A DNA stretch of 33,773 bases from Bacilli bacterium (GCA_017470005.1 JAFUFH010000050.1:1-33773); one strand, 5' to 3'; counted from the stretch's first letter, positions 3,167-32,481 are shown. Program-made: numbers and translations. The notes: generated by a model from the letters alone, not told the origin.

Positions 3167-3186
3167 AATGAAAAAGGAGAACAGCT

Positions 3187-3375: not shown

Positions 3376-3383
3376 ATTATTAT

Positions 3384-3413
3384 TTAAGAAATAATTAACT
3401 TCCGTGTTATAAT
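3384..3413 (+). promoter_or_regulatory. Probable sigma-A promoter of the export operon
   Basis: TTAAGA at 3384-3389 and TATAAT at 3408-3413 are separated by 18 bp, upstream of the gene at 3437. No TGTGGC repeat is present here, so the exporter may be driven differently from the precursor. An AT-only dyad (AATTATT/AATAATT, about 3375-3395) overlaps the -35. Confidence 0.45.
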
Positions 3414-3436
3414 TTGTTAACCACAAAAGAACAAAA

Positions 3437-3829: not shown

Positions 3830-3831
3830 TT

Positions 3832-9668: not shown

Positions 9669-9669
9669 C

Positions 9670-16851: not shown

Positions 16852-18126
16852 CTATTTGTTATTATCTGGAATATAGATTCTAACAATAGTGCCCCCATTT
16901 TCATTTGGTGAAATGGTTAATGTCCCTTTAATTGCCGATAGACGTTCACGAATATTATTTAAAGCAGTGTGTGGCTCTCCGTTATCTTTATCGGAGATAC
17001 CAGGACCAGTATCGCTAACGATAATAACGCTACCCTTTTCTACTTTTTCAGTTTTAACAGAAACACGCAATGGGTCAGTTGAATCGATATCCAATCCGTA
17101 TTTCACGGAGTTCTCTACAAGTGGTTGCAATGTTAAAGGTGGAATACGGAATAAAGTATGAGGTGTATCAAATTCCACTAAAAGGTTATCTTCATATTGT
17201 GCTTTTACAACAGCTAGATAAGCGCGAGTATGTTCTAATTCTTCAGAAAAAGGAATAGGTTCTTTGTTTGTGATCGCATGGAAGTTTTTGCGAAGATAAA
17301 TAGTGAAATCCAAAGTAACTTGTTGAGCTTTTTCAGAATCTTGTTTACATAAATAATAGATACTTGTCATCGTGTTATAAATAAAATGAGGACGCATTTG
17401 TAAGACCGCGATACTAGCGCTTTGATCAGCAATCTTTCTTTGTTGATTAAAATATTGCTCAATTTGTTCGGACATGATGATGCCAAACATCGATAAAGCA
17501 GAGATGGAAATAGCTACTACAATCCAAATGAAGACGGAGACAAATGCTTGCAAGGTCATGACAATTAATAAAGGAAGTAGATAAACAAGAAAAGCGATGA
17601 AATATTTTTTGCTAAGTGCTTTTCGATTACAAAGTATTTCAATGAGGTTCGAAACGATAAGTGCAAGCATCAAAACAATTAAAACCCAATAGTATTGCCC
17701 ACGGATAAAATCATTTTCTTCAGTGAAATAATAAATTCCATCTATAAACTGGGTGAGGATAAGCAAAATAAATAAAGCCACACATAAGGCGATATTTAGA
17801 TAAAATATCAAGCTTTTGCGGATGTTTTTCTTAGCGCAAGCCAAAACATACATTGTAAAAAGAGGCATTAAAACCGAAGGAAAAAATGTTTCAATAAAAG
17901 CAATGATCCTTTCCACCCAGGCTAGATTTGGATTGGTATAAATAAATATGTCAATAACATAAGCAACAATACTCAAAAGCAAAATTGAAAAAGATGAAAT
18001 GAAGAACAATTTGCTTCTTTTATCTAAAGTTGGGAAAGTAGAAGAAGCCAGAAGTCCTAATAAAACAACTAAAAATAAAGCACCGCCAATAAAAAAGTAA
18101 CCAAATAATAGAGTATCACTTGGCAT
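16852..18126 (-). CDS. LytS/YehU-like sensor histidine kinase with seven membrane helices
   Basis: The 424-residue protein (ATG start at 18126) has seven predicted transmembrane helices in the first 220 residues and then a short linker to the kinase. The His_kinase block LQMRPHFIYNTMTSIYYLC carries the phosphorylated His at about residue 247, and the ATP-binding domain shows the N-box LVENSVKYG and the G-box DTGPGISD. This is the LytS-type architecture. The start shares one base with the stop of the regulator gene upstream (TGATG) and has an AGGAGG Shine-Dalgarno, so the two are translationally coupled; a TTG at 18129 is a less likely start. The signal is unknown; the divergent surface protein gene is a plausible target of the pathway. 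Confidence 0.88.
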   Translation of the reverse strand: MPSDTLLFGYFFIGGALFLVVLLGLLASSTFPTLDKRSKLFFISSFSILLLSIVAYVIDIFIYTNPNLAWVERIIAFIETFFPSVLMPLFTMYVLACAKKNIRKSLIFYLNIALCVALFILLILTQFIDGIYYFTEENDFIRGQYYWVLIVLMLALIVSNLIEILCNRKALSKKYFIAFLVYLLPLLIVMTLQAFVSVFIWIVVAISISALSMFGIIMSEQIEQYFNQQRKIADQSASIAVLQMRPHFIYNTMTSIYYLCKQDSEKAQQVTLDFTIYLRKNFHAITNKEPIPFSEELEHTRAYLAVVKAQYEDNLLVEFDTPHTLFRIPPLTLQPLVENSVKYGLDIDSTDPLRVSVKTEKVEKGSVIIVSDTGPGISDKDNGEPHTALNNIRERLSAIKGTLTISPNENGGTIVRIYIPDNNK

Positions 18127-18722
18127 CAATAAATCCCTCCTGTTGAAATTGGATGTCTTAACTTTTTAAGCTGTTCTTTTACACCTTCTAGTGTAATAGG
18201 TTTAACCATAAAACCACTAGCTTTAGTGTTCCACGCTTCAATGGAATATTCTGGATAAGCAGTTAAGAAAACAACGTTCATTCTTGGATTGATTTCAAGT
18301 AAGGAATTACATAAATCTATTCCATTTGTTAAACCAAGTTCAATATCTAAAAACGCTAGTGAAACGCGGTTATTTTGTGCGTATTTCATCGCTTCTGATG
18401 GCTTTGTAAAACCAGAAACGATTGCGTTAGGTAAAGCTTTTTCAATAATAGGAGTGCCACCAGTAAGGATGATTTTATTATCATCAACGATGATGACATT
18501 TGGGTGATTGTCAACTTCATTTGCGGCATCAAGTAATTCAACGACATCAACTTCAAGAATCTCCGCGATTTTAGCGATGATTGTAGCGTTAGGAAGTCTT
18601 CTATCCGCCTCCCAGTTAGCGACGCTTGATCTAGTGACAGGTAAACTATCCGCTAATTGCTTTTGCGACATTCCTTTTTGTTCTCGAATTTCTAAAAGTG
18701 CTTTTCCAAACGTGCGTTTCAC
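18126..18722 (-). CDS. Response regulator with N-terminal XRE-type HTH and C-terminal receiver domain
   Basis: Residues 1-65 are a Cro/CI-type helix-turn-helix (SQKQLADSLPVTRSSVANWE), and residues about 74-195 a receiver domain with the acidic pair D80/D81, phospho-acceptor D126 (LAFLDIELG), T154 and K174 (VKPITLEG), so phosphorylation should work. The domain order is reversed relative to usual regulators, and LytS-type kinases normally pair with LytTR regulators, not XRE ones. The gene starts with GTG at 18722 behind GGAGGG. It heads a two-gene operon with the kinase and is divergent from the surface protein gene; the shared region has a 15-bp palindrome that could be its operator. Confidence 0.88.
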   Translation of the reverse strand: MKRTFGKALLEIREQKGMSQKQLADSLPVTRSSVANWEADRRLPNATIIAKIAEILEVDVVELLDAANEVDNHPNVIIVDDNKIILTGGTPIIEKALPNAIVSGFTKPSEAMKYAQNNRVSLAFLDIELGLTNGIDLCNSLLEINPRMNVVFLTAYPEYSIEAWNTKASGFMVKPITLEGVKEQLKKLRHPISTGGIY

Positions 18723-18928: not shown

Positions 18929-21586
18929 ATGAAAAAGAAAACATTAGCTAGTGTCAGTATGTTAGGTTTATTCCTCACTGTATTAGCAGGAACAGGCATG
19001 AGCCAAGCTCCTATTAAAACAGAAGTGAGAAAAGAAGCACTTCGCGAGGAAAACAAAACAACTTACACCTTCACCATGGAAACTATGAAAGGCTATTGGA
19101 AGGATGCCAACGATAGCACCTATCTTTATTTCACTTATAAGGATGGTTCCACCAAACAGGCTCCTGCTTTCCCTGGTACAAAAATGAATTTATCCTATTA
19201 TGAGGGTAAAAGTTTCCTCTATTTCTATTGCTCTATCACTCCCGAAGATGAGATTAAGGAATTCTATTTTAATAACGGCACCAATGATGCCTATAGAACA
19301 ACAGATCCTATCCCATTCTTTACCGACCGTACAGTGCACCCACTCAATGTCAACGGTGGACCTAGTGGCTCTCACTATGAAATTGCTAATTGTAGAATCA
19401 ATTATGTAGAAAATAACGCCACTCTCGATTACAACGACATGACATTCCAACCCTGGGTAAACCCATATGCTTGGCCTGAAACTGTGGGTAACTACTATCT
19501 AGGCGTAGACATGGAAATCGTTGATGAATGGACTCTTCCTGAAGGAGAAGTAAGCCTTCTCTTAAATGGACATAGTGTGAACAACGTTAACGATAAGGCC
19601 AGCCGTTATTTCTATGTAGATAAAAACACCACATTCAATTTATACGATAATTCTGAAGAAAAACGCACTTATGAATTCGAATTTGGAAACTATCGTTACA
19701 CTCACATCCCTATTGTGGATGCCGAATATAACGAAGAACACGCGAATGAAGGTCATGTCATAACTGGCGGATATATCACTAGGGCTTATGGATCCAAGAG
19801 CTCTTATCATAAGAATGCTGGAAAAGGTGGCGCCGTTTATAACGAAGGTACTTTCAACATGTATGGCGGAACCATTATGGGTAGCAACGGCAATGGTGGT
19901 GGAGGCGGTGTCTATAACGCTGGTACATTCAATATGTATGGTGGACGTTTAACCGCTAATGTCTGTGGTAATGGTGCTGGTCTGTTGAACGCCGGTACCG
20001 CCACAATCATGGAAGGTGCTTCCATCGATGACAATTACGCTTCCTACGGTGGTGGAGGCATCTATAATACCGGTAATCTCATTTTGGATAATGCAACCAT
20101 CTCCAATAATGCCGCAAATGAATACGGTGGTGGTATCGCAAATGCCATATATGAAGATGAAGAAACCATGGAAGCGGTCACTGGATTGACCACTTTAAAG
20201 GGTAAGTGCGTCATCAATGACAACGTTAAATGCGGATATAATTGGGATACCGATGAATCCTACACGATAGGCAAAGATAATCTCTGTTTATTAGCTGGTA
20301 AAGTCATTGATTGGAGTGCCGCAGATTTGAAGTTTATCACAGTTCCTACCTACCTCACTATTGAGGGTGATAAATTAAGCGAAGGGTCTGACATTGGTAT
20401 TACCATGGAAGAGGCTGGCGACTTCTCTACTGGTCTTTCCAAATCTAAATCCAAAGCCAATCGTGAGTTCTTCACAGCTGACGATCCTAATTACTCCGTT
20501 CGTGTCAATGGCTCAACAGGCCAATTGTCTCTTGTGGATGCTTCTACACCAGAAGAACCCGACCACGAACATGTATTAACCTATACCGCGGATGGAGACA
20601 CAATCACCGCCACTTGTAGTGCTGAGGATTGTGATTTAGAAAATAATAAAGCCACATTGACGATAAAGGCTCCTGCCAACTTAGAATATGATGGTAAAGC
20701 AAAACTCGCTACTTTCAAAGAAGGTTATGATTCTACTGTCTTCCCTAATCCTGTCATCAAGTATTATCAGGGTTCTAGCGAAGTCGCTTCCTGTGTCGAA
20801 TTAGGTAAATACCAAGCTAGAGTCACTTTCGGTAATGCCACTGCCTTCGTTGGCTTTGAAATCATCGGTAAGAAAGTTGTTGATCCTAATAACCCCAATG
20901 TCTCCCTTGAAATCAATGATATCGTCGATACCGAAGATATCGAATTAAGAGTCGAAGTTAGAATAGATGTTGCGGAAAAAGATGTCGCCGAAGATTATGC
21001 TAAGATTCAAAAAATGCTCAAAGATGGTGAGCAGATTGCAAAAGTCTATGATGTCAAGCTCGTCAGAATTGTTGGTGGTGTTGAAACCGTCATTCAACCT
21101 TCGGATATCAAAGCTGGATTGACCATCAAAGTTAGAATGGCTATCCCTGAAGGGGTCGACATCAAAAACACTAGAATTCTCCACATCCACAATATTGATG
21201 ATATGGAATTTGTCAGTGATTTTGAAATTTCCGGTAAGGACATTGTCTTCCCTATCACTAGATTGTCTCAATTCGCTTTCGTCGTAAATACCAAGGTTGG
21301 ATTAAATGGTGGTATCATCGCATTGATCGTCATTCTTTCCATCTTAGCCGTGTTAGGTATCTGCTTCTGCTTATTGTTCTTCATCTTTGCAAAATTCATC
21401 ATCGTTGTTGAAAATAACGAAGAGAAGATTGTGAAAGCCATCAAGCTCGGAAAAGAAAAACAAGACGATAAGGAAATGATCAAGCTCATCACCTTCAAGT
21501 TCAAGAAAGAAGTCAGAGTCGAAGAAGAAGTCTTCAATAAGAAACAAGATGCCGAAGAATTCTTGAAAAACAAGAATAAACAATAA
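18929..21586 (+). CDS. Secreted beta-helix surface protein with C-terminal membrane anchor
   Basis: The 885-residue protein has a signal peptide (MKKKTLASVSMLGLFLTVLA then GTGMSQA). A Gly-rich region at about 285-410 repeats YNxGTFNMYGG-like units, typical of a right-handed parallel beta-helix. A HVLTYTADGDTITATC domain follows near 545-600, of a kind common in surface proteins of gut Bacillota. A single transmembrane helix at about 790-823 is followed by about 60 charged cytoplasmic residues (coiled, Lys/Glu-rich). There is no LPXTG sorting motif. ATG 18929 is preferred over the in-frame ATG at 18923, which touches the AAAGGAG Shine-Dalgarno (18916-18922). Codon use is closer to the RiPP locus than to its right-hand neighbours. 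The function is probably adhesion or surface sensing, uncertain. Confidence 0.8.
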   Translation: MKKKTLASVSMLGLFLTVLAGTGMSQAPIKTEVRKEALREENKTTYTFTMETMKGYWKDANDSTYLYFTYKDGSTKQAPAFPGTKMNLSYYEGKSFLYFYCSITPEDEIKEFYFNNGTNDAYRTTDPIPFFTDRTVHPLNVNGGPSGSHYEIANCRINYVENNATLDYNDMTFQPWVNPYAWPETVGNYYLGVDMEIVDEWTLPEGEVSLLLNGHSVNNVNDKASRYFYVDKNTTFNLYDNSEEKRTYEFEFGNYRYTHIPIVDAEYNEEHANEGHVITGGYITRAYGSKSSYHKNAGKGGAVYNEGTFNMYGGTIMGSNGNGGGGGVYNAGTFNMYGGRLTANVCGNGAGLLNAGTATIMEGASIDDNYASYGGGGIYNTGNLILDNATISNNAANEYGGGIANAIYEDEETMEAVTGLTTLKGKCVINDNVKCGYNWDTDESYTIGKDNLCLLAGKVIDWSAADLKFITVPTYLTIEGDKLSEGSDIGITMEEAGDFSTGLSKSKSKANREFFTADDPNYSVRVNGSTGQLSLVDASTPEEPDHEHVLTYTADGDTITATCSAEDCDLENNKATLTIKAPANLEYDGKAKLATFKEGYDSTVFPNPVIKYYQGSSEVASCVELGKYQARVTFGNATAFVGFEIIGKKVVDPNNPNVSLEINDIVDTEDIELRVEVRIDVAEKDVAEDYAKIQKMLKDGEQIAKVYDVKLVRIVGGVETVIQPSDIKAGLTIKVRMAIPEGVDIKNTRILHIHNIDDMEFVSDFEISGKDIVFPITRLSQFAFVVNTKVGLNGGIIALIVILSILAVLGICFCLLFFIFAKFIIVVENNEEKIVKAIKLGKEKQDDKEMIKLITFKFKKEVRVEEEVFNKKQDAEEFLKNKNKQ

Positions 21587-21601
21587 ATAATTAATTAGCC
21601 T

Positions 21602-21633
21602 AAGACCTCTAAATCCATTTTAGAGGTCTTTTA
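21602..21633 (+). terminator. Rho-independent terminator of the surface protein gene
   Basis: AAGACCTCTAAA pairs with TTTTAGAGGTCTT around a TCCA loop and runs into T residues. It lies 16 bp after the stop codon. Confidence 0.9.
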
Positions 21634-21718
21634 TCATATAGAAAGGAACACGGATTCATGAATAATTTACTAAAAAAGGGCCTTGTTGAACCACCTTTTT
21701 GAGTAAGCAAAAAAACAT

Positions 21719-21784
21719 ATTCACTCGGAAAAGTCTATACTATGATCAGGGATTCGCTTGAATACATAAGACTGCGTATTTCAT
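21719..21784 (+). repeat. Degenerate two-copy remnant of the 33-bp repeat
   Basis: ATTCACTCGGAAAAGTC at 21719 and ATTCGCTTGAATACA at 21752 are again 33 bp apart and match the array at 15152-15316, including the TATACTATG that follows one unit there. No DUF4143 gene follows here; instead the segment abuts a mobile-element end, so the gene was probably lost or displaced. Confidence 0.65.
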
Positions 21785-21858
21785 GATTCAAATAGCCTTA
21801 TCGACATTCCATAGTTCTCTATGTCTTCCTTGAGCTTTCTGTAGTCATCCATCGTCAT
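21781..21858 (-). pseudogene. Truncated mobile-element gene start
   Basis: Twenty-five codons, MTMDDYRKLKEDIENYGMSI then RLFES and a TGA stop. The first 20 match the partial gene at 1-60 with a few conservative changes. It is too short to function. Confidence 0.6.
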
Positions 21859-21867
21859 ATCAAAAAC

Positions 21868-21902
21868 GCCTCCTTTTGCCTATTTTTTAGGCAATCAGAG
21901 GC
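21868..21902 (-). promoter_or_regulatory. Ribosome-binding-site hairpin, copy 2
   Basis: On the minus strand GCCTC..TGCCTA pairs with TAGGCA..GAGGC, and the GGAGG Shine-Dalgarno forms part of the outer arm. This is the best paired of the three copies (two stacked stems), supporting sequestration of the site. Confidence 0.5.
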
Positions 21903-21974
21903 ATGATAGGAATGACGCTGATTTAGTGACGCTTACGCTTTTCTTGGTTATTAACACTCTTACTATATAAGCGC

Positions 21975-22003
21975 TTGACTCTCTCTCTTTCTCTCTTTAT
22001 AAT
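21975..22003 (+). promoter_or_regulatory. Near-consensus sigma-A promoter of the protease/AAA+ operon
   Basis: TTGACT at 21975-21980 and TATAAT at 21998-22003 are separated by exactly 17 bp. The spacer is a CT-rich run (CTCTCTCTTTCTCTCTT). An 8-bp palindrome AAGCGCTT (21969-21976) overlaps the -35. The start would be about 22010, giving a leader of about 40 bases. Confidence 0.85.
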
Positions 22004-22048
22004 TCTATTAAAGGGAACACGTTAAAATCACTTATGGGAGAAAAAGGG

Positions 22049-22837
22049 ATGAAAGAAAACGCGATTCTAATTAGACCACTTGATGTTTTGAAAGTAGGAG
22101 TTGATTTTTCTAATTTGGAAAATATTAACTACGCAATCAATGCTGATGGCGTCTCAACAATTCATACACAAAGAACTCAAGAAATTTCTGATAAACTCGG
22201 GATTCATATCATTGGGTTTGTGGATAGAAATGCAAATGATATTAATAATCCAAAAGCTTGTGAAATATCGGGCTATAAATATATTGGTTCATTTATGCTT
22301 GTCTGTAAAACAGACAGTCGTTTCAGCCCACTTCCATTAAATGAAGATGAATTGGAAACTGTTTATACGTATCTAGCTACGAATGATGTAGCATTAGCAA
22401 AATCAAATGATGCTAAAACATTTTTTACCAGATATGAGATAACAAATCCACTTTTACCAGTATCTAATGTCGTTCCTTCTACATATTACAAAAAAGAAGT
22501 TTCTTACATGATTATGTTTAGGTACGATTTAACTAATTTATCTAGACAAGAAATTGATGAATTTGCTGAATCACTAAAGCAACTTGATAAACGAATATTT
22601 TTTGAAAATTTTAGGGATGTCGATGGAGTTTTATTGTCTCCAGATAAGAAATATTATTTTTGCAGTTTACTTGATGACGATTTGAATAATTTTTATGTCG
22701 TTTTTCAAGCAAAAGATGATGTTACCGAAGAGATTCTTCTTAAAAATATCAAAGGTACAGTTAATGGATTCTTAGGGTTAATGGAAGAACCAGAACATGT
22801 TGATATGGATACCGCTAGCGAAGAAACAATGGATTAA
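22049..22837 (+). CDS. Unrecognised protein, first gene of the protease/AAA+ operon
   Basis: The 262-residue soluble, acidic protein has no signal peptide or membrane helix and I do not recognise its family. It appears to have two parts: residues 1-130 (opening MKENAILIRPLDVLKVGVDF) and 145-240 (VSYMIMFRYDLTNLSRQEID and on), ending in an acidic tail (EEPEHVDMDTASEETMD). ATG 22049 is preferred over the in-frame ATG at 22034 because GGAG lies 8 bp before it and nothing like a Shine-Dalgarno precedes 22034. It is the promoter-proximal gene of the operon, so a sensor or adaptor for the AAA+/protease pair is possible but unsupported. Confidence 0.7.
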   Translation: MKENAILIRPLDVLKVGVDFSNLENINYAINADGVSTIHTQRTQEISDKLGIHIIGFVDRNANDINNPKACEISGYKYIGSFMLVCKTDSRFSPLPLNEDELETVYTYLATNDVALAKSNDAKTFFTRYEITNPLLPVSNVVPSTYYKKEVSYMIMFRYDLTNLSRQEIDEFAESLKQLDKRIFFENFRDVDGVLLSPDKKYYFCSLLDDDLNNFYVVFQAKDDVTEEILLKNIKGTVNGFLGLMEEPEHVDMDTASEETMD

Positions 22838-22850
22838 GCGAGGTTGATTC

Positions 22851-23006
22851 ATGATCAAAAAAAAGAAAAAAACCAAAAAAGATGATTCGGATATATTGTT
22901 ACCAGGTGACTTAAATATCCCAGATCCATTAGATGATGTAAAAGATAAGAAAATTGATCGTAAAAGGAGAGTAGAAATTCCTGACCCGCTAGATGATGTT
23001 AAATAA
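22851..23006 (+). CDS. Small protein of 51 residues with a duplicated IPDPLDDVK motif
   Basis: A GAGG Shine-Dalgarno at 22840-22843 precedes an ATG, and the frame is open to a TAA at 23004. The protein starts with a lysine-rich run (MIKKKKKTKKDD) and contains IPDPLDDVK twice, at about residues 23-31 and 43-51, the second forming the exact C-terminus. The two copies use different codons (for example CCAGATCCATTA and CCTGACCCGCTA), so selection acts on the peptide. It fills the gap between its neighbours (13 and 14 bp on either side). It looks like an unstructured adaptor or substrate with a docking motif. Function unknown. Confidence 0.75.
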   Translation: MIKKKKKTKKDDSDILLPGDLNIPDPLDDVKDKKIDRKRRVEIPDPLDDVK

Positions 23007-23020
23007 AAAAAGGAACAATT

Positions 23021-23581
23021 ATGAGCGCAATTAGAATTAAAGTTAAAAAAGCTACTGGAGACTATGATGTTGGTGCATCCAAGATGTTAGGCAATCCAGT
23101 TTTGCCATCAGGGATGGAAGACGAGCTTCCTTCTACTGCAATGTTTTTGATGCAAATTAAATTAGAGGACATTAAAGATTTAGATGCAGATAACATGCTT
23201 CCTCATAAAGGATATTTATATTTTTTTCTTGATGTTGAGGATGGAATTTATTCCATGAAGCCGATAGTAAAATTCTCTGAAGAAGAACCTGTTAATCACA
23301 TTACCGATTTTAATAAAATTGTTGAAGATTTTGAACAATATGACCAAGACTATTTAATTGAATTTGAAAAGTGCGATGATAGTGAAACTGGCAACAAGCT
23401 ATTAGGTTGCCCAGGGGATTGGCAATTTAGTGAAGAACCAGATCAATTATTATTCCAACTTGATCCAATGGATAGTGAGGAAATGGGGTTATTCCCAACT
23501 TTTGATGGAATGATGTATTTCTTTTTTGGAAAGGACAAAAATAATTTTGACGATGTAAGATTAGTGGAGGATTTCTCATAA
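23021..23581 (+). CDS. DUF1963 (YwqG)-like protein
   Basis: The 186-residue protein resembles the DUF1963/YwqG family: an opening MLGNPVLPSGMEDELPS, a FLMQI strand, a YLYFFLDVEDG segment, the typical KLLGCPGDWQ then LLFQLDP, and a closing MMYFFFGKDKNNFDDVRLVE. It is shorter than typical YwqG proteins (about 250 residues). The biochemical role of the family is not established. Its stop codon overlaps the next start by one base (TAATG), so the two products are translationally coupled and may act together. Confidence 0.6.
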   Translation: MSAIRIKVKKATGDYDVGASKMLGNPVLPSGMEDELPSTAMFLMQIKLEDIKDLDADNMLPHKGYLYFFLDVEDGIYSMKPIVKFSEEEPVNHITDFNKIVEDFEQYDQDYLIEFEKCDDSETGNKLLGCPGDWQFSEEPDQLLFQLDPMDSEEMGLFPTFDGMMYFFFGKDKNNFDDVRLVEDFS

Positions 23582-24243
23582 TGATTACTCCAGAAATTAA
23601 AAATCAAGTAAATGAAATTTTTAAACGAATCAATTCTAGATTAGAACATCCATATGCAGCCGCAACTTATGTTGATGTTCCTGATTTAAAAGAAATCGAT
23701 AAAATTACAAGAGAAAACTGTGAAGATACAGTCAATGATTTAAATTTTCTATTCGAAGTTGATTTGTATCTTGCTGATAGGTACACAAGTTTAGGCAGAT
23801 TCTCTATTTCAGCGAACTATAATTTTGATGCTTTAAAAGTAGCGGATTTGTTAAGTAATACCCATCACCATGTAAAAGCCATTAAGGGTGACATGGCAGA
23901 ATTATTTTCTAATCTACTTAGAGATCGCAATTTTTATGTTGATGACGATTGTAAAGATTGCTTAGGACTCGCAAAACACACCGGTTTATATACGGATGAA
24001 GAACTTGAGCATATATATAACCGTCGTATGCAAAAAAGAAGAAATATTAAGACCGATCCAGTGGAAATGAGCCCAGAATATCTTGCCGTTATCGATGAAG
24101 TTGAAAAAAAGATTGCAGAAAATTCCAAATTTAAAATGGGATTTTGCTTTGAAACATGGGAACTTAAGGAAATATATTTAGGAGAAAAAGGTATCAAATG
24201 GTCATCTCCTGCATCTTTAAATCCGAGAGTTATGTTTGATTAA
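23581..24243 (+). CDS. Unrecognised 220-residue soluble protein
   Basis: No signal peptide or membrane segment. The protein is mostly helical in appearance, with a conserved-looking HHHVKAIKGDMAEL stretch, a Cys pair (DDCKDCLG), and a C-terminal tail FCFETWELKEIYLGEKGIKW followed by SSPASLNPRVMFD. That ending (aromatic-rich, W-x-S-P then N-P-x-V-x-F-D) looks like a family signature, but I cannot name the family. The start overlaps the stop of the DUF1963-like gene by one base. Confidence 0.65.
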   Translation: MITPEIKNQVNEIFKRINSRLEHPYAAATYVDVPDLKEIDKITRENCEDTVNDLNFLFEVDLYLADRYTSLGRFSISANYNFDALKVADLLSNTHHHVKAIKGDMAELFSNLLRDRNFYVDDDCKDCLGLAKHTGLYTDEELEHIYNRRMQKRRNIKTDPVEMSPEYLAVIDEVEKKIAENSKFKMGFCFETWELKEIYLGEKGIKWSSPASLNPRVMFD

Positions 24244-24262
24244 GATTAATAAGGATTGTAAT

Positions 24263-26533
24263 ATGCAACCATTTGAAAAAGAATTATTAAAAAACAATTC
24301 GTATTTTGTTGAAACGCCTCTTTTAACTGAGGAAGTTAATCGCGTTATTGATTTAGAGGCGAGCCAACGTGAAGCTTTAATGGTGTATTCTCTTGCTCCC
24401 GTTGGAAAGAATATTGCTTTTAAGAACGCTTTAAATAAATTAGAAGGCAATAAAATATTCATTAATTTTAATGACTTATCTTATATGTCATCGTTTCCCT
24501 GCTATTATATTGTTAAAACAATATATGACAAATTAGATGAATATGGCATTGCTCATCAAGGGGATTTTCCCTATACTCCTCCAAGCAATTCACATCTTGA
24601 TGTTGAAACGGATTATGACATCCTTTTGGGCGTATTGAAAACCGATTTATATTGTTTAAAGTTAGATAAACCTTTATACATTCTAATCAGTAATTGTGAT
24701 ATGCCTTTTGATAATGATTTTTCATTGACTTTTTATCGTCATTTCATTTTTGATAAAAGAAGATTGCCAGACAATTTACATGTCTTTTTAATCACAAGCG
24801 ATATCACTCAAGTTGAGGCGAATAAAGAATATTTAGAAACTTATAGTTTAGAAGGAAATAAGGACAACCCAAAATTATTTTTTAAAGATTTAATGGGCAA
24901 ATATGGTCGAAATGTTGATGATGAATTACTTTTATTAGCTAATCCATCTTTAAAAATTTCCGATTATATTTATATTGCTGGTTTTGTCATTAATTACGTT
25001 GGGTTAAAAGAATACCACTATACTTTGTCATCTTTGTTAAGCAAAAATAACACGGATGAAATTTTGCTATATATCTTTACTGATTTTTACTCTCGATTAA
25101 GTAGAAACGGGAAAATTATCTTCACGGAATCCCTATTAGACTTATATATGTTTAATTTTGGCTTAACCAGTGAAGAGATATTGTCCTCTGGAAAATATTT
25201 ATTCTCCAACGATGAAGATAATCATCGCTTAATGGATTATGAAGAAATTTCTAAAAACGAAAAGAATATAATTCTTACTTCGCTAGAATTCTTTACAAGA
25301 AAAGAGGATGATCGTTTCGTTGTATTTGACCGCATTATTAAAGAGTTCATTGGCACTAATGCTATGTATTTCACCAAACTTATTTGCGATGAATATAAAA
25401 ATCGATTATCCGACGCCGTTGAACATATTTATCAAAATACCGAATATTTAGAGAAAATAGACTATCGCTATTTTGCTGAAGAATATATGGGTAACCATGT
25501 ATTGAAAGTAGATAAAAAATCTTATTTTATCCATTTAGAAAAAGAAGGGGTTTATTCAAAAAAGAACATTGCTAGATACGCTATTTTCATCCCACTAATT
25601 AATCGAATTAAAACTCATATTTCTAAATTCCCAATTCATCTTACTAATTTTGATATAAAGAGTATTTCGGAAAACGAAATATTTATGCTCTCATATATTG
25701 AAAGAGCTTCTGTTATCTATTTATCTGGATTAAATTATGGTGCGTTTTATTCTTTATTTAAGAATAAAGATTTGATGTATTTTCTATTAGCAAAATCTCG
25801 TCGTATGGTAAGAAGAGTCCTTAATAGGTTTATTGACACCCAATACGAATATCATAAGAAAATAGATGCTGGCAAAGGTGATATTTCTTCTTCGCTAGGC
25901 ACACTTTTATGTTCTGAATTTGATTATTTAAGTGATGATAAAGATGATATTCATTTGAGAGAAGAATTGCTACTCCTTCTTGGAGAAGTTTTATACGAAA
26001 ATGACATTTTGGTTAATGGTAAAGTTAAAGATAATTTTTATAAATATTGCACTGACCCAATAACTGATTTTGCTATCGTCAGCAATAATAACTCGGAACC
26101 AATAAAATGTTTAAATGATTTCATTGAGTCTCTAAAAGAAGAAGTGATTCCTTTTGAAAAATTGTCTTCTGATCTAGGTTATTATTGCCAAAAATATCAA
26201 GATGAAGATAATGTTTTCCATAAATTGATTTATGCTTACCTAGCATTAAAAATATATATGGTCTTAGGCGAAAACAGACAAGTTAATGCTAAATTATCTT
26301 CTTTATTAGAGCCTGTTATGAGCGATGTTTTGATATATTGCGAATATTGTTATTTCCCAGAAGTTTATGGCTCGATATATGCTTTATTCGGCCGAATTTA
26401 TCCTAAAGATTATTTAGGCAGGATGACTATAGGTGCGAATTTTCTTATTTCTCAAGGGTATCAAAAAACCGCTGATGACTTTATTCGCGCTATTAAATAT
26501 TTCTCCTCTTTAAAAATAAAGGAGGGTGAATAG
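24263..26533 (+). CDS. Large protein with degenerate P-loop NTPase-like N-terminus
   Basis: The 756-residue protein has an N-terminal region of about 200 residues with the layout of an AAA+/STAND NTPase. A Walker-A-like loop at about 42-50 reads YSLAPVGKN: GK is kept, but the expected upstream glycine and the Ser/Thr after the lysine are missing. A Walker-B-like strand YILISNCD (about 139-146) and a sensor-like HVFLITSDI follow. The remaining 550 residues are helical and not recognised. I infer an inactive NTPase that binds or scaffolds, rather than hydrolyses. ATG 24263 is preferred over an earlier in-frame codon because AAGGA lies 7 bp upstream. The stop is 1 bp before the AAA+-trypsin gene, so the two are likely partners. 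Confidence 0.6.
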   Translation: MQPFEKELLKNNSYFVETPLLTEEVNRVIDLEASQREALMVYSLAPVGKNIAFKNALNKLEGNKIFINFNDLSYMSSFPCYYIVKTIYDKLDEYGIAHQGDFPYTPPSNSHLDVETDYDILLGVLKTDLYCLKLDKPLYILISNCDMPFDNDFSLTFYRHFIFDKRRLPDNLHVFLITSDITQVEANKEYLETYSLEGNKDNPKLFFKDLMGKYGRNVDDELLLLANPSLKISDYIYIAGFVINYVGLKEYHYTLSSLLSKNNTDEILLYIFTDFYSRLSRNGKIIFTESLLDLYMFNFGLTSEEILSSGKYLFSNDEDNHRLMDYEEISKNEKNIILTSLEFFTRKEDDRFVVFDRIIKEFIGTNAMYFTKLICDEYKNRLSDAVEHIYQNTEYLEKIDYRYFAEEYMGNHVLKVDKKSYFIHLEKEGVYSKKNIARYAIFIPLINRIKTHISKFPIHLTNFDIKSISENEIFMLSYIERASVIYLSGLNYGAFYSLFKNKDLMYFLLAKSRRMVRRVLNRFIDTQYEYHKKIDAGKGDISSSLGTLLCSEFDYLSDDKDDIHLREELLLLLGEVLYENDILVNGKVKDNFYKYCTDPITDFAIVSNNNSEPIKCLNDFIESLKEEVIPFEKLSSDLGYYCQKYQDEDNVFHKLIYAYLALKIYMVLGENRQVNAKLSSLLEPVMSDVLIYCEYCYFPEVYGSIYALFGRIYPKDYLGRMTIGANFLISQGYQKTADDFIRAIKYFSSLKIKEGE

Positions 26534-26534
26534 T

Positions 26535-29500
26535 ATGGATAAAAAATATTGCACAAGTCGTTGGATTCAATTGTCTGAGACTGAATATGGCGATTTTAAT
26601 AGTAAAGAAGAAGGACCATATTTTGGTGTTGTTTTAAAAGATAATATTAATTTATATAACTTCGGTCGTTTCAATTCTAAACACCAATTTGATGGTTTAA
26701 TTTGCTCTGCGTATCATAGCTGGTTTGATTTTGCTGAATATAGCAATGGGGAATTAATTTCTCCAATCATCAGAGCACATAACAACCCTTCTATTAGTGT
26801 TACCATAGGAGAAATCAAAAAAGGAAACGCAAGAAGGATATGGATCGATTTCACAACCTCTAATTTTGATTATTACAAAATCAATGAACTTGGAGAAATT
26901 GTTGGAGTTTTCATTCATTATGAAGGGAAAGACGGTTCTATTTGTTTTAAAAAATATGAAGCTGGAAAGATTATTTCTACTATCGATCTTCCAAAAAAAT
27001 TCCCGTTAAAGTCAAAAATTTTATCAAATGCTTTTGCTTTTATTCCAACTAGAACTGATTTTGGTGTATTTAAATTAACTAGCAGTAACACTCAAACCTA
27101 TTGTGAAAACTCTAATGGTGATGCGGTAGGAATTGGTGTTACAACGGTAGAAAAAGATTTTTATTCTTTAAGTACATTTGCTAATGGAGCAAGAGATGGT
27201 TATCAATTTGTTCGTGACAATAATGTTTCTAGACTTCTTTATGGCGTAAACAACGACTTTACTGGTCCGATCATCGAATTAAGAGATGATGGTATTTTTA
27301 TCACTGCGGATAATAAAGATGATGATGGAAACGTTGTTCATTCAGCAATGATAATGATTCTTGATGATGAACTATATTTATTTGATTCTAATACCGGAAC
27401 GATTGAAAAAAATGACCCTTCTATTAAATTCGTCGATTTTGATGAAATCTCTTTTGATTTAAAAGGAGATAACAACTATACAGATTTTTATTCCGCTGAT
27501 GACTTGTTTAAGGAAAAGACGATTGAAAAAGAAAAAGTTGAAGTTAAGCAACCAGAAGCAGATGTTAATGACCCAGAATATAAAATTATGTCTTTAATAG
27601 GTCAAGAAGACGTCAAAAAAGAATTTAAACGTATTAGAGCCTATATTCAAAAAAATGACGCTTCTAAGATTTATAAAAATATGGTTTTCTCTGGAGAAAA
27701 TGGTGTTGGCAAATCTACAGTTGCTAAACTCATTTGTGATGTTTTATATAAATATCACGCAATTTCTTCAAAATTCTACAGTGAAAGAAATGCTAAGGAG
27801 ATATTCAACAATGTCACCGGTGGAACAGCTGAAAACCTAGATAATTTATTTAAAAATGGCAGAGGTGGTGTAATTTTAATCGATGACATTCATTATTTGG
27901 ATGCACTAAATAGTTCAGAAGTCAGCGAAGGCTTGTGGGCTTTAGCAAAAATCATGGAAGAAAACCCCGAAACCGTTTTTATTCTTTGTGATAACAAATA
28001 TAACATGAATCAAATCATGGAAAATAATTTAACTCTTTTCCAAAGATTAATTCGTTTCCATATGAACTTTGTTGACTTCACTAAAGAAGAATTAGGCCAA
28101 ATTTTAGATATTAAATTGAAAGAAAAAGGATATACAATTCATCAAGATGCTAAAGATAAATTATTAGAGGTCATTTTCTTGTCGAAAGCGTATGGTAACA
28201 ACATTAACGCAACCGCAGCAATAGCAATTTTAGACGAAATCATTGTTATTCAAAATGTAAGAACTGAATTTGTTGATGATAAAACTATTACTAAAGATGA
28301 TGTCGATGTTTATGTTATCGAAAACGATATCGAATTTATCGATCAAAAAACAGGTTTCCAATCTGATGCTAGAAAAAAACTGGATGAATTAATCGGGTTA
28401 GAGAATATCAAGGAAACTGTCGATGACTTAATTGCCTATTTCTCTATAAATAGAGGCAAGAAAGTTGATTTTCATATGTCTTTCTCTGGCAACCCAGGAA
28501 CTGGTAAAACGGAAGTAGCCCGTATTATTGGTAAATTATTGCGACAAGAAGGTATTTTGCCGACATCGAAGTTCTTAGAAGTTACGAGAAAAGATTTAAT
28601 CGGACAATATATTGGGCAAACTGCTATATTGACTAGAAATATTATCGATAAAGCAATGGGCGGAGTTCTTTACATTGATGAAGCTTATTCTTTAGCGTAT
28701 GGCTCAGAGCGTGGTGGAGGCGGTAAAGACTATGGCCAAGAATGTATCTCTGAATTATTGAAGGCTATGGAAGATAGGCGTGGAGAATTTTGCGTCATTA
28801 TGGCGGGTTATACCAAGGAGATGGAAAGGTTATTTGAATTAAACCCTGGTTTTAAATCACGTGTTAAATTTCATTTAGAATTCCCTGATTATTCTGATGA
28901 AGAATTAGGAAAGATTGCTCGTTTATTCTTAAAACGAGAAAACGCAATTATGAGTGATGAAAATATTCATTTGCTTGTCAAACTCGTGTCAATTCAAAGA
29001 AATTTCCCAAATTTTGCCAATGTTCGTACTTTAAGAGAAGCAATTTCTAAAGTGCAAATTAAGCACGCTAGAAAGATAAGAGAAAATCCTGACAATCCAA
29101 ACAATAATGAATTAACAAAAGATGACATTCTAAACGCTTTCTCTAAAGAGGAAATGGAATTATTAGATAAATTCGAGAAGGATACAGATAAACCTTCTAA
29201 ATATAATCCTCAAGAATTGAAAGAATTATATGAAGGATATGTTCCACAACCATTAGAACAAAATAAAGACTATCTAACTGAGGCAGTTTTAGCGCTAAAG
29301 ATGTCGGATGGGAAAAATGGTGAAGGGACAGGATTTATCATTTCTAAAGATGGATATTTTTTGACTTGTGCACACTGTGTGGATGGAGCCAGAAAAATTA
29401 TTGCAAGAAGAAGAATTTCACATCACGGAAGACATGTCGATATTCATTATGACTCCACGGTGATTTCTTTAGATAAAAAGGCCGATGTTGCCTTATGCAA

Positions 29501-29888
29501 AATTATCGCAGACGAGAAGGAAGAATTTGAATATCTTGTTCTTGATGATGGTGTCAAAGAAATAGAAAAGCTTACTCATGTCCACTTGCTTGGTTATCCT
29601 TTTGGAGTTACTCGCTTTGATGAATTATCCATTAATGAAGGCAAAGTAATGTCTTATCAAAAAGCGAATCAGTGGATGGAGGATCAAATTAATCTAGATA
29701 TACAGGCTAAAGGTGGTAATTCTGGTTCACCTCTTATAGATAGTAATACCTCTAAAGTTATAGGTGTATTCTGTGGATCTGCTATATCCTATGGCCAATC
29801 TATCACTGAAGAAATTAATTACGCAAGACCAATTAAATATGTCTGGAATATGTTAGGCAAAGAATATAAGGAGAATAACGAACTATGA
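26535..29888 (+). CDS. Fusion of beta-rich domain, two AAA+ domains and a trypsin-like protease
   Basis: The 1117-residue protein is modular. Residues 1-310 are beta-rich with MORN-like Gly/Tyr spacing, not assigned. AAA+ domain 1 (about 350-600) has Walker A SGENGVGKST (386-395) and Walker B VILIDDIHYLD. AAA+ domain 2 (about 612-870) is CbxX/SpoVK-like, with SGNPGTGKTE (651-660), LYIDEAYSLA (about 712-721), and Arg residues in NPGFKSRVKF. Residues about 910-1100 are a trypsin-like serine protease with His947 (LTCAHCVDG), Asp984 (KADVALCKI) and Ser1063 (GGNSGSPL), all in order. No signal peptide, so it works in the cytoplasm. The ATPases probably control or feed the protease. AGGAGGG precedes ATG 26535; GTG 26526 is an alternative in-frame start. 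Confidence 0.88.
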   Translation: MDKKYCTSRWIQLSETEYGDFNSKEEGPYFGVVLKDNINLYNFGRFNSKHQFDGLICSAYHSWFDFAEYSNGELISPIIRAHNNPSISVTIGEIKKGNARRIWIDFTTSNFDYYKINELGEIVGVFIHYEGKDGSICFKKYEAGKIISTIDLPKKFPLKSKILSNAFAFIPTRTDFGVFKLTSSNTQTYCENSNGDAVGIGVTTVEKDFYSLSTFANGARDGYQFVRDNNVSRLLYGVNNDFTGPIIELRDDGIFITADNKDDDGNVVHSAMIMILDDELYLFDSNTGTIEKNDPSIKFVDFDEISFDLKGDNNYTDFYSADDLFKEKTIEKEKVEVKQPEADVNDPEYKIMSLIGQEDVKKEFKRIRAYIQKNDASKIYKNMVFSGENGVGKSTVAKLICDVLYKYHAISSKFYSERNAKEIFNNVTGGTAENLDNLFKNGRGGVILIDDIHYLDALNSSEVSEGLWALAKIMEENPETVFILCDNKYNMNQIMENNLTLFQRLIRFHMNFVDFTKEELGQILDIKLKEKGYTIHQDAKDKLLEVIFLSKAYGNNINATAAIAILDEIIVIQNVRTEFVDDKTITKDDVDVYVIENDIEFIDQKTGFQSDARKKLDELIGLENIKETVDDLIAYFSINRGKKVDFHMSFSGNPGTGKTEVARIIGKLLRQEGILPTSKFLEVTRKDLIGQYIGQTAILTRNIIDKAMGGVLYIDEAYSLAYGSERGGGGKDYGQECISELLKAMEDRRGEFCVIMAGYTKEMERLFELNPGFKSRVKFHLEFPDYSDEELGKIARLFLKRENAIMSDENIHLLVKLVSIQRNFPNFANVRTLREAISKVQIKHARKIRENPDNPNNNELTKDDILNAFSKEEMELLDKFEKDTDKPSKYNPQELKELYEGYVPQPLEQNKDYLTEAVLALKMSDGKNGEGTGFIISKDGYFLTCAHCVDGARKIIARRRISHHGRHVDIHYDSTVISLDKKADVALCKIIADEKEEFEYLVLDDGVKEIEKLTHVHLLGYPFGVTRFDELSINEGKVMSYQKANQWMEDQINLDIQAKGGNSGSPLIDSNTSKVIGVFCGSAISYGQSITEEINYARPIKYVWNMLGKEYKENNEL

Positions 29889-30283
29889 TTGATGAAAACT
29901 TATTTAAAAGAGACACGTTTTTACTAGAAGAAAGCGACCCACTAACCATATGTATTTCTTTTGATTATAACAGAGATGATAATTCCAAACGTGTCGTTAA
30001 AGAAATAACTCCTGAGATGCAAAAGAAATTAAATGGTGGAGCTCCTATTTGGGAAGAACTGGATAGAAGTTATTCTGTAAAAATCTACGCAATGAGCCAC
30101 AACAACGTTTATCTCACTGTTTATGAACAAGTAGCGGAAACTGCATTTAAAAGGATTGAAAATATCATTTTAAACAAATTCCATCCTCAATGGTGTGGTT
30201 TCTTAGGTGAAGGCGATCACCAATTCGTTTATTGCTTTTTTATTAAAGAATTAGGAGGCCTTAAACGTGGAATTATTATATAA
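29885..30283 (+). CDS. Unrecognised 132-residue protein downstream of the AAA+-protease gene
   Basis: Starts within the stop of the protease gene (ATGA overlap, 29885-29888) behind AAGGAG, so it is coupled to it. The protein is soluble with an alternating strand/helix appearance (DPLTICISFDY, YSVKIYAMSHNNVYLTVYEQ, WCGFLGEGDHQFVYCFFIKE). No family recognised. Its 3' end overlaps the next gene by 17 bp. Confidence 0.65.
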   Translation: MIDENLFKRDTFLLEESDPLTICISFDYNRDDNSKRVVKEITPEMQKKLNGGAPIWEELDRSYSVKIYAMSHNNVYLTVYEQVAETAFKRIENIILNKFHPQWCGFLGEGDHQFVYCFFIKELGGLKRGIII

Positions 30284-30548
30284 AGGAAGTTTAAGAGCTT
30301 TAAGAGGTCCTGGAATGGCTTTTGCTAATCCAGAAGGAAAATTTAATCATGAACATATGCACTTTTTCTTGTCTTTAGGTATCCAAGATATGTCTATTCG
30401 TATTGATGACATTAATGATGAAGGAATTGCATTTACCATCAAATATTTTAATAACGACACCCATTATTTCATTAGGCCAGGCGAGACAATTGAATTAAAA
30501 AAAGAAGGCAATGCCTTCGGTTGTGAATTATATTTTTCCATCGGATAA
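30267..30548 (+). CDS. Unrecognised 93-residue beta-rich protein, GTG start
   Basis: GTG at 30267 follows TTAGGAGG with 8-bp spacing, inside the end of the preceding gene. The protein looks like a small beta-sandwich (FFLSLGIQDMSIRIDDINDE, IAFTIKYFNND, GETIELKKEG) with a His-rich NHEHMHFF turn. It has the scale of an adaptor or recognition domain. Family unknown. Confidence 0.65.
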   Translation: MELLYKGSLRALRGPGMAFANPEGKFNHEHMHFFLSLGIQDMSIRIDDINDEGIAFTIKYFNNDTHYFIRPGETIELKKEGNAFGCELYFSIG

Positions 30549-30576
30549 ATAGATATTAATTAAGGAGAATAACACT

Positions 30577-30897
30577 ATGATTTATAATACGGACACCCTT
30601 ACTATTAAGTTAAGATGTTATAATTCAGAAAATCATAAAGAGGAAGTTACTAATCTTGCCTGTCAACTAGGAGCAGAAGTTCTTTTTAAAACGCACCATT
30701 ATCTAGTGAAGGTTATTAATATGAATAACGAAGAGGTTGAGTTGGAAGTTGATGATGGTAAAAAAGTTAGTAAACATCTTCTTCAAGTAGATAAACAAAT
30801 ATGTAGAGATGATGAATATTGGTACGCTACTGGCAATCCTAATGATCCGGCTGATAAACATGGCCCAATTTTATATATGACATTAGCGAGAAAATGA
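30577..30897 (+). CDS. Unrecognised 106-residue protein, last gene of the operon
   Basis: A good AAGGAG precedes ATG 30577, 28 bp after the preceding stop. The protein alternates short strands and charged turns (TLTIKLRCYN, YLVKVINMNNEEVELEVDDG) and resembles its two upstream neighbours in size and style without clear identity. The stop is TGA. No convincing terminator follows. Confidence 0.6.
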   Translation: MIYNTDTLTIKLRCYNSENHKEEVTNLACQLGAEVLFKTHHYLVKVINMNNEEVELEVDDGKKVSKHLLQVDKQICRDDEYWYATGNPNDPADKHGPILYMTLARK

Positions 30898-31167
30898 TTA
30901 CTCGTATGATACATTTTCTTGCTGCCGAAAAAAATTTAGTAGGTTAAATTAACTTATATATTCTGCGATATTAGATAACAAAAAATTGACCATCGAATTA
31001 GCGCGTGGTGCTTCGCCCATATATCGCGCTTCGTTCGACATTTTTGATTTGGCTGTCCACACTGAGACAATAAGGACAGTGAACTTCATTCATGTTGCTG
31101 ATGATAAGAAAGCCGCTAAGGATAATTATCCAAATAATACAACCATCCAATTGCAAATACAAAATAT
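30898..31167. other. Gene-poor spacer with a possible gene remnant
   Basis: A frame open from about 30953 reads ILDNKKLTIELARGASPIYR and on to about 31160, with no ATG and no Shine-Dalgarno. It may be the decayed end of a gene, or chance. An inverted repeat AGCGCG/CGCGCT spans 31000-31030. I see no RNA gene and no clear terminator. Confidence 0.3.
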
Positions 31168-31187
31168 TTGTCTAGCATACTCGACAA
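31168..31187. promoter_or_regulatory. Palindromic operator, copy 1, before a DUF4143 ATPase gene
   Basis: TTGTCTAGCATACTCGACAA is two mismatches from the perfect palindrome TTGTCGAGTATACTCGACAA. The second copy starts exactly 33 bp downstream. A TATACT (31193-31198) between the copies is a possible -10. Confidence 0.6.
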
Positions 31188-31200
31188 ATATCTATACTTA

Positions 31201-31220
31201 TTGTAGAATATACTCGACAA
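31201..31220. promoter_or_regulatory. Palindromic operator, copy 2, abutting the ribosome binding site
   Basis: TTGTAGAATATACTCGACAA shares the complete right half with copy 1 and keeps the TTGT of the left half. It directly precedes GGAGA and the ATG at 31231, so a bound protein would block transcription of the ATPase gene. Confidence 0.6.
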
Positions 31221-31230
31221 GGAGACTTTT

Positions 31231-32481
31231 ATGAATCATGAAACTTTGAAAAGAATCATCTTTGATCAACACCAAGTCATAAAAGACGCTGTGATAATTG
31301 ATAGGAATATTGTTTTAGAAAAAAACGTTAATTATGTTTTAGTTGGATTAAGAAGAGCAGGCAAAACAACATTGCTTTATAAAAGAGCGCTGGAATTAAT
31401 TAACGAAGGTGTTGATTGGAATCAAATTATTTATATTAATTTCGATGATGAAAGGTTGCTTGAATTCACTGTTAACGATTTTGATGACATTCTTTTAGTA
31501 GCAGAAGAATTATCAAACAAAAAACATTATTTTTATTTCGATGAGATTCAAAATATCGATGGTTGGGAAAAGTTTGCTATTCGCATTGCAAATCAAGGAT
31601 ATAAAGTTGATATTACTGGAAGCAATGCAAAAATGCTTTCTAAAGAAGTGGAAGCAAGACTAGGCGGAAGATACATTTCTAAGGAAATCATGACATATTC
31701 TTTTGATGAGTTTTTAAGAGCTAATAACACAAATAAAGCTGGATATTCTGTTAAAGAGCTTGGACAAATAAATAGTTTGTTGAATGATTATTTTATTAAT
31801 GGTGGCTTTCCCGAATCTATCAGCTTTAAAAACAAAAGAGAATACATTTCTAGCATTTATCAAAAGGTTCTTTATAATGACATCATTGTTCATAACAATA
31901 TAAGAAATGAAAATGGTATCAAACTTATGATAAAAAAAATAGCCGAATCAGTTAAGCAAGAACTTTCTTTTACTAAAATTCAAAATATTATTACTGGCAT
32001 TGGATATAAAATATCTAAAGATATAGTTATCGATTATTGCGGATATTGTAAAGATGCTTTTCTCTTATTTACACTAGAAAATTACTGCACTTCTTTTTTA
32101 GATAAGAATAGCAATCCAAAATATTATTTTATGGACAACGGAATATTAAATCTTTTCTTAGATGACAAAAGAAGTTCACTATTAGAAAATATTGTCGCTC
32201 TACACTTATACAGAACTCATAAAGATTGCCTTTACTATTTCAAAGGTTACAAAGCTGATATTGATTTTTATCTTTCTGAATTTAATACCGCAATTCAAGT
32301 AGCGTATTCAATCGATGAAAAAGATGCTTATGATCGTGAAGTTAATAGTTTAATCGCTTTTGCGAAAGCTAATCAGTCAAAATCCAATTTGATAATTATA
32401 ACTTACGAAGAGGAAAAAATAATTGAAATTGATGGATTTTTAATCAAAGTTATTCCACTAAAAAAGTTTTTGCTTAATTAA
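31231..32481 (+). CDS. DUF4143 family P-loop ATPase, second copy
   Basis: The 416-residue protein has Walker A GLRRAGKT at residues 39-46 and a Walker-B-like YFYFDEIQNIDGW, then the DUF4143 region. Near the C-terminus ADIDF is present but the partner motif reads AIQVAYS in place of the E-x-K found in the protein at 15320, so the nuclease-like site is incomplete, as in one known subgroup. The two ATPases are distant relatives, not a recent duplication. AAGGAGA precedes the ATG, and two 20-bp operators lie directly upstream. The gene is AT-rich and stands alone. Confidence 0.85.
   Translation: MNHETLKRIIFDQHQVIKDAVIIDRNIVLEKNVNYVLVGLRRAGKTTLLYKRALELINEGVDWNQIIYINFDDERLLEFTVNDFDDILLVAEELSNKKHYFYFDEIQNIDGWEKFAIRIANQGYKVDITGSNAKMLSKEVEARLGGRYISKEIMTYSFDEFLRANNTNKAGYSVKELGQINSLLNDYFINGGFPESISFKNKREYISSIYQKVLYNDIIVHNNIRNENGIKLMIKKIAESVKQELSFTKIQNIITGIGYKISKDIVIDYCGYCKDAFLLFTLENYCTSFLDKNSNPKYYFMDNGILNLFLDDKRSSLLENIVALHLYRTHKDCLYYFKGYKADIDFYLSEFNTAIQVAYSIDEKDAYDREVNSLIAFAKANQSKSNLIIITYEEEKIIEIDGFLIKVIPLKKFLLN

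What the first reader, a model, noticed from the sequence alone, without database searches (positions are those of the whole stretch)
22049..30897. Candidate new NTP-controlled protease system: nine-gene operon around an AAA+-AAA+-trypsin fusion and a degenerate NTPase
Seen: one near-consensus promoter, nine tightly packed or overlapping genes, a cytoplasmic trypsin-like protease fused to two AAA+ domains, a neighbour with a broken P-loop, a DUF1963-like protein and several small unknown proteins. The block has AT-rich codon use, is flanked by mobile-element debris and DUF4143 genes, and has no metabolic gene. Known: bacterial conflict systems that pair active AAA+ ATPases with inactive STAND-like NTPases and trypsin-like effectors have been described around MoxR/VMAP modules. 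Inferred: this is a relative or an analogue in which a CbxX-type AAA+ takes the regulatory place. I do not recognise this exact gene set as a named system.
Basis: partly seen in the sequence, partly recalled or inferred. Interest (0 to 1): 0.9.

Follow-up and report, generated by a model that had tools for sequence, protein, structure and literature searches.

The report
Protease fused to protein-remodelling motor, with partners
This is a nine-gene bacterial operon, rare but found again in a second bacterial family, whose central protein joins an ATP-driven protein-remodelling motor to a protein-cutting domain, a combination that specialists looked for in this motor family and reported not finding; what it cuts and when is unknown.

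Summary
The observation mostly holds. Window 22049-30897 carries nine packed genes behind one near-consensus promoter. The 1117-residue protein is a degenerate MORN-like region, a divergent AAA+, a SpoVK/CbbX/EccA-clade AAA+ and a trypsin-like protease with His947-Asp984-Ser1063. Genes 1-8 recur in the same order in another family (G105; 44-57% identity where measured), genes 3-6 in G514. Distribution is patchy: one of 15 genomes of the window's genus, 2 of 296 in the class. Outside the operon, the AAA+-trypsin fusion and the DUF1963 + gene-4 pair still co-occur: in 296 class genomes the same four, from three genera, carry the fusion and gene 4, and RUG14810 has both at separate loci. This defines a core. 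Bacteroidales carry gene 4, DUF1963 and a triple AAA+ in kinase/phosphatase/FHA clusters, some with an M48 peptidase. A 2023 preprint found no peptidase association in this AAA+ clade, so the fusion is a counterexample. Not supported: gene 5 as a degenerate NTPase, kinship with VMAP/MoxR systems, mobile-element debris. Defence is possible but only indirectly supported. Most likely: an ATP-driven cytosolic protease with two dedicated partner proteins; no activity has been shown.

The parts
21975..22003 (+). promoter-like site TTGACT-17-TATAAT upstream of gene 1
   Evidence: 11 of 12 consensus positions, the only + strand match that good in 21500-31500; consensus match only
22049..22837 (+). gene 1, 262 aa; N-terminal domain weakly resembles a domain (domX) of TerB-containing proteins in Bacteroidales AAA+ clusters
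   Evidence: 44% identical to the G105 gene; hhalign 75%, pairwise E 2.5e-5 to domX: suggestive only
22851..23006 (+). gene 2, 51 aa, lysine-rich with a repeated DPLDDVK motif
   Evidence: short protein at the same place in G105 with the same motif, E 0.0091
23021..23581 (+). gene 3, 186 aa, DUF1963 (TYPP superfamily; proposed protein-binding, chaperone-like)
   Evidence: Pfam PF09234 E 4.1e-10; superfamily and proposed role from PMC4275035; adjacent to gene 4 in all six Bacilli loci seen
23581..24243 (+). gene 4, 220 aa, unnamed family ending in NPxVMFD
   Evidence: hhalign 99.4%, E 8.6e-22 to the Bacteroidales family; alignments; helical model of low mean confidence with a confident C-terminal part
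24263..26533 (+). gene 5, 756 aa, orphan family without a P-loop, found only in the operon type
   Evidence: full-length homologues only in G105 and G514; no family match
26535..29888 (+). gene 6, 1117 aa AAA+-AAA+-trypsin fusion
26535..27524 (+). gene 6 N-terminal region (residues 1-330), degenerate MORN-like by eye, fastest evolving
   Evidence: 25-30% identity between homologues; the shorter G137 fusion has recognisable MORN repeats at this end
27552..28334 (+). gene 6 divergent AAA+ domain 1 (residues 340-600), Walker A GENGVGKST, Walker B LIDD
   Evidence: long branch in the tree
28356..29150 (+). gene 6 AAA+ domain 2 (residues 608-872), SpoVK/CbbX/EccA clade
   Evidence: SpoVK 1.8e-89 and CbbX 2.9e-86; CbbX and EccA1 structures; 73-76% identity between homologues
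29310..29864 (+). gene 6 trypsin-like domain (residues 926-1110), His947, Asp984, Ser1063
   Evidence: Trypsin_2 E 6e-21; triad residues invariant in the three full-length proteins
29885..30283 (+). gene 7, 132 aa, unknown
   Evidence: homologue at the same place in G105, E 3.3e-11
30267..30548 (+). gene 8, 93 aa, unknown
   Evidence: homologue at the same place in G105, E 2.1e-16
30577..30897 (+). gene 9, 106 aa, unknown; no homologue found in G105
31231..32481 (+). flanking AAA_14-DUF4143 gene, probably not part of the operon
   Evidence: Pfam, PADLOC candidate PDC-S01 E 9.7e-88; 333 bases after gene 9; absent from the G105 locus

Best explanation
The operon encodes a cytosolic, ATP-driven proteolytic machine. 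Gene 6 is its engine: the CbbX-type AAA+ module would assemble as a ring, grip and remodel a specific client, and expose it to the trypsin-like domain on the same chain for cutting. Gene 3 (DUF1963/TYPP) and gene 4 would be dedicated partners that present or regulate the client; the fast-evolving N-terminal region of gene 6 and the operon-specific genes 1, 2, 5, 7, 8 and 9 would add recognition and control. It is an accessory system whose most likely setting is stress or conflict, perhaps antiphage (role and mechanism are scored apart). Shown: gene set, order, conservation of catalytic and Walker motifs, co-occurrence of the core, patchy distribution. Inferred: ring assembly, ATP-dependence, cutting, adaptor roles, biological role.
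For: Fusion in window, G105, RUG14810, G137 and G335, with trypsin domains 54-68% identical among the full-length proteins. Fused AAA+ domains lie in one part of the tree with two unfused relatives, consistent with an old fusion. Fusion and gene 4 mark the same four of 296 genomes (naive p 3.2e-9, 1.3e-6 by genus), and RUG14810 has both although apart. Genes 3 and 4 are adjacent in six of six Bacilli loci. In two genomes of the same order, operons hold an AAA+ of this clade and a separate trypsin gene. No signal or membrane segment in gene 6. DUF1963 has a proposed protein-binding, chaperone-like role (PMC4275035).
Against: No biochemistry. Characterised clade members are non-degradative chaperones (PMC10659427). 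Trypsin-like domains in the effector position of vWA conflict proteins are mostly inactive (PMC7159879); here the triad residues are present but activity is untested. Fusion-bearing lineages number about four, so counts are small and not corrected for phylogeny. The Bacteroidales clusters with gene 4 and DUF1963 lack the trypsin domain.
Confidence: 0.55

Rival explanations
1. Dedicated chaperone with a processing step: the AAA+ module remodels one client, as SpoVK, CbbX and EccA do, and the trypsin domain makes one limited cut or serves as a binding module; the system is not degradative.
For: Characterised members of the clade act on narrow clients without degradation (PMC10659427); AAA+ domain 2 is the best-conserved part.
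Against: The triad residues are invariant in all three full-length proteins, which a pure binding module would not need.
Confidence: 0.25
2. Stress or envelope signalling module: the Bacilli operon is a reduced relative of the Bacteroidales kinase-phosphatase-FHA-TerB cluster and works in phosphorylation-linked stress signalling, not defence.
For: Gene 4, DUF1963 and AAA+ of this clade occur in those clusters: of 48 loci with the AAA+ and kinase, 15 hold gene 4, 17 DUF1963, 39 PP2C, 38 FHA. One pair of loci shares a pgk neighbourhood.
Against: No kinase, phosphatase or FHA gene in the window operon; many loci are cut by contig ends; patchy distribution in Bacilli.
Confidence: 0.25
3. Antiphage or conflict system in which infection triggers cutting of a host or phage protein (the first reader's reading, in general form; a claim about role, compatible with the best explanation's mechanism).
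For: Patchy distribution and AT-rich composition. Gene 3-4 pair beside a DUF4062 protein in RUG14810, and DUF4062 in 11 of 48 Bacteroidales loci; DUF4062 proteins include an antiphage NADase (PMC13174449). A separate AAA+/trypsin operon holds TIR-domain genes.
Against: No match to a PADLOC system beyond generic similarity; no relative in IMG/VR by the scans done; none covering most of gene 6 on plasmids or phages.
Confidence: 0.35
4. Relative of VMAP/iSTAND-MoxR-vWA ternary systems.
For: Peptidase domains occur with AAA+ ATPases in those systems (PMC7159879).
Against: No MoxR, vWA, VMAP or iSTAND component found; the paper's text does not mention CbxX, SpoVK, MORN or DUF1963; different AAA+ clade.
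Confidence: 0.04

Closest known systems
SpoVK/CbbX/EccA clade of AAA+ chaperones
   Same: AAA+ domain 2 matches SpoVK and CbbX models and CbbX and EccA1 structures; GY signature at 758-759
   Different: C-terminal trypsin-like domain and a divergent second AAA+; Delerue et al. 2023 report no evidence of peptidase fusions or interactions in the clade (PMC10659427)
Lon and FtsH (AAA+ fused to a protease)
   Same: motor and protease on one chain
   Different: different AAA+ clade, and a trypsin-like protease domain instead of Lon S16 or FtsH M41
HtrA/DegP family proteases
   Same: trypsin domain matches HtrA models and DegQ/DegP structures
   Different: no PDZ domain among the matches shown, no membrane or signal segment, fused to AAA+
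VMAP/iSTAND-MoxR-vWA ternary conflict systems
   Same: AAA+ and trypsin-like domains in one gene set
   Different: defining components absent
Bacteroidales triple-AAA+ / kinase / PP2C / FHA / TerB clusters (unnamed in the literature found)
   Same: gene 4, DUF1963 and AAA+ of this clade
   Different: no trypsin fusion; kinase-phosphatase signalling genes; M48-TerB peptidase in 8 of 48

Membership tests
SpoVK/CbbX/EccA AAA+ clade | sequence match to clade models and structures | tested here: met
   SpoVK E 1.8e-89, CbbX 2.9e-86, EccA 4.4e-62, all below the equivalog cut-offs, so clade but not a named member; PDB CbbX and EccA1
SpoVK/CbbX/EccA AAA+ clade | conserved tyrosine in a sensor-1 GY signature | tested here: met
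   G758 Y759 invariant in the three full-length proteins
SpoVK/CbbX/EccA AAA+ clade | asparagine four residues before the first arginine finger, and second arginine finger | tested here: inconclusive
   N770-P-G-F-K-S-R776 is present but the published numbering could not be mapped with certainty; R831/R834 not assigned structurally
SpoVK/CbbX/EccA AAA+ clade | no peptidase fusion (a reported negative, not a defining rule) | tested here: not met
   trypsin fused in five genomes; M41 peptidase fused in G042; does not exclude membership
S1 trypsin-like protease (HtrA-like) | His-Asp-Ser triad in a trypsin-like domain | tested here: met
   H947, D984, S1063 invariant; Trypsin_2 6e-21; activity not testable here
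DUF1963/TYPP | match to the DUF1963 model | tested here: met
   E 4.1e-10, 40.8 bits against a cut-off of 23
STAND or degenerate AAA+ NTPase (gene 5) | P-loop NTPase fold, P-loop intact or degenerate | tested here: inconclusive
   no P-loop in three members, no family hit, no similarity to the DUF4062-STAND family; fold model unusable
VMAP/iSTAND-MoxR-vWA ternary system | MoxR AAA+, vWA protein and VMAP or iSTAND component | tested here: not met
   none found in the nine genes and flanks scanned
known antiphage system | match to a PADLOC-DB system | tested here: not met
   only generic AAA+ or protease similarity for the nine genes; library dated 2023
known antiphage system | protection against phage | not testable with these tools
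   needs experiment

The most novel reading that the evidence does not exclude
A previously undescribed class of ATP-dependent protease: CbbX-clade AAA+ coupled to swappable peptidases (trypsin fused or in the same operon; M41 fused; M48 in the same cluster) with DUF1963 and gene 4 as conserved partners, used in stress or antiphage responses in both Bacilli and Bacteroidales.
Probability: 0.3. Interest if true: 0.85.

Novelty: new variant of a known kind. Interest (0 to 1): 0.68.

Why it matters
A published survey of this AAA+ clade reported no evidence of peptidase fusions or interactions; the window, four other genomes and one M41 case are counterexamples found by sequence. If the coupling works as inferred, a clade known for narrow-client chaperones also holds proteases, and gene 4, an unnamed family, becomes a marker for finding them. 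It gives a small, expressible core of three proteins to test.

Tried and rejected
Gene 5 as counterpart of the DUF4062-STAND NTPase beside genes 3-4 in RUG14810: hhalign probability 0.3%. Gene 5 fold: single-sequence AlphaFold2 failed, pLDDT 37. By-eye likeness of genes 7, 8, 9 and the G105 244-aa protein to each other and to Bacteroidales beta-rich domains: not supported by hhalign. Gene 1 as DUF3846-like, by eye: not returned by Pfam; only the domX similarity at 75% remains. Gene 5 against structures: nothing significant. Viral contigs with genes 5 and 6, plasmids with genes 4-6 and phages with gene 6: no relative covering most of the query. Literature on the gene set: none found among the open papers held. 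A fold search with gene 4 was not run because the model averages pLDDT 55.

Full report
What is there. The window is contig C65 of assembly G000. Nine same-strand genes lie at 22049-30897 with gaps of -17 to +28 bases, behind a TTGACT-17-TATAAT site at 21975-22003. Gene 6 is a fusion of an N-terminal region, two AAA+ domains and a trypsin-like domain. Domain 2 matches SpoVK, CbbX and EccA; domain 1 is much more divergent. The triad is His947, Asp984, Ser1063, and both AAA+ domains keep a Walker A motif. Composition is AT-rich across operon and DUF4143 flanks, so the AT-rich stretch is wider than the operon.

Is it a unit? Yes. G105, from another family of the same class, has genes 1 to 8 in the same order; identity is 44% for gene 1, 51% for gene 4, 49% for gene 5 and 57% for gene 6. 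It has an extra 244-aa gene before gene 1 and no gene 9. A third genome, G514, same genus as G105, shows genes 3-6 up to a contig end. The set is patchy: gene 5 in the window and G105 only among 296 class genomes, apart from one marginal partial hit; full-length gene 6 in one of 15 genomes of the window's genus; gene 5 in two of four sampled genomes of G105's genus. Several of these genomes are incomplete.

A smaller core. The fusion also occurs outside the operon: full length in RUG14810, and as a shorter MORN-AAA+-trypsin protein in G137 and G335 at one shared locus. A gene 4 profile finds, at E below 1e-10, exactly G000, G105, G137 and G335 among 296 class genomes; the fusion marks the same four. 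The chance of that is 3.2e-9 naively or 1.3e-6 counted by genus, neither corrected for phylogeny. Weaker gene 4 hits, short or marginal, exist in five other genomes. RUG14810 also has gene 4, beside DUF1963 and away from its fusion gene. Genes 3 and 4 are adjacent in window, G105, G514, RUG14810, G137 and G335. Genes 1 and 5 were not found in RUG14810, G137 or G335. So the core is fusion + DUF1963 + gene 4, and the rest is operon-specific.

Beyond Bacilli. Gene 4 has clear homologues in Bacteroidales, in clusters with a triple AAA+ of this clade, kinase, PP2C, FHA, zinc-ribbon, TerB, DUF1963 and DUF4062 genes; of 48 loci with AAA+ and kinase, 15 hold gene 4, 17 DUF1963, 11 DUF4062 and 8 an M48-TerB peptidase. 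These loci were retrieved through gene 6, many are cut by contig ends, and no background rate was measured. Gene 4 ends in a conserved NPxVMFD tail in the aligned members.

Couplings to peptidases in this clade: trypsin fused (above); trypsin as a separate gene in operons of G039 and G031, with SPFH and BspA-type LRR genes and, in G039, TIR genes; M41 fused in G042. Delerue et al. state that they found no evidence for peptidase fusions or interactions in the clade (PMC10659427).

How it may work. Inference: an AAA+ ring remodels a client and the linked trypsin domain cuts it; DUF1963, proposed to bind poorly structured or extended protein (PMC4275035), and gene 4 present or control the client. 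The N-terminal region of gene 6 varies most (25-30% identity against 73-76% for AAA+ domain 2), as a recognition surface might. No activity has been shown.

Role. Defence is suggested by patchiness and by DUF4062 neighbours of genes 3-4 in RUG14810 and Bacteroidales; DUF4062 is reported as a TIR-like NADase family with an antiphage member (PMC13174449). Against it: no match to catalogued systems and no relative of the whole protein in the mobile-element collections. Stress signalling is nearly as defensible.

Known or new. Not a VMAP/MoxR ternary system: its defining components are absent. By sequence gene 6 belongs to the SpoVK/CbbX/EccA clade, with a new architecture. No paper found here describes the gene set; the library holds only open-licence papers, so this is not proof of novelty.

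Noticed in passing
L086:5548-8853 (G042:C2): CbbX-clade AAA+ protein of 1101 aa with a C-terminal Peptidase_M41 domain, E 4.9e-34: another peptidase fusion in a clade reported to lack them.
   Followed up: partly
L087:80-11107 (G039:C5) and L088:77-8638 (G031:C1): Operons with SpoVK-like AAA+, zinc-ribbon trypsin-like protease, SPFH, BspA-type LRR and, in L087, TIR-domain genes.
   Followed up: partly
L020, L067, L025 and about 45 further Bacteroidales loci: Unnamed cluster of triple AAA+, Ser/Thr kinase, PP2C, FHA, TerB, zinc-ribbon, DUF4062, DUF1963 and sometimes an M48-TerB peptidase.
   Followed up: partly
window 1715-6000: Radical SAM/SPASM protein near an ABC exporter with a C39 peptidase domain, the layout of a ribosomal-peptide maturation and export locus.
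   Followed up: no
window 8514-11541: STAS-APH fusion protein next to a SpoIIE phosphatase fused to a histidine-kinase-like ATPase domain, suggesting partner-switching regulation.
   Followed up: no
window 18126-18722: Response regulator with an N-terminal HTH and a C-terminal receiver domain, the reverse of the usual order, beside a histidine kinase.
   Followed up: no
L138:6953-7222 (G200:C129): 89-aa protein that resembles only the C-terminal part of gene 4 and ends in DPDIRFD, so that part may exist as a separate small domain.
   Followed up: no
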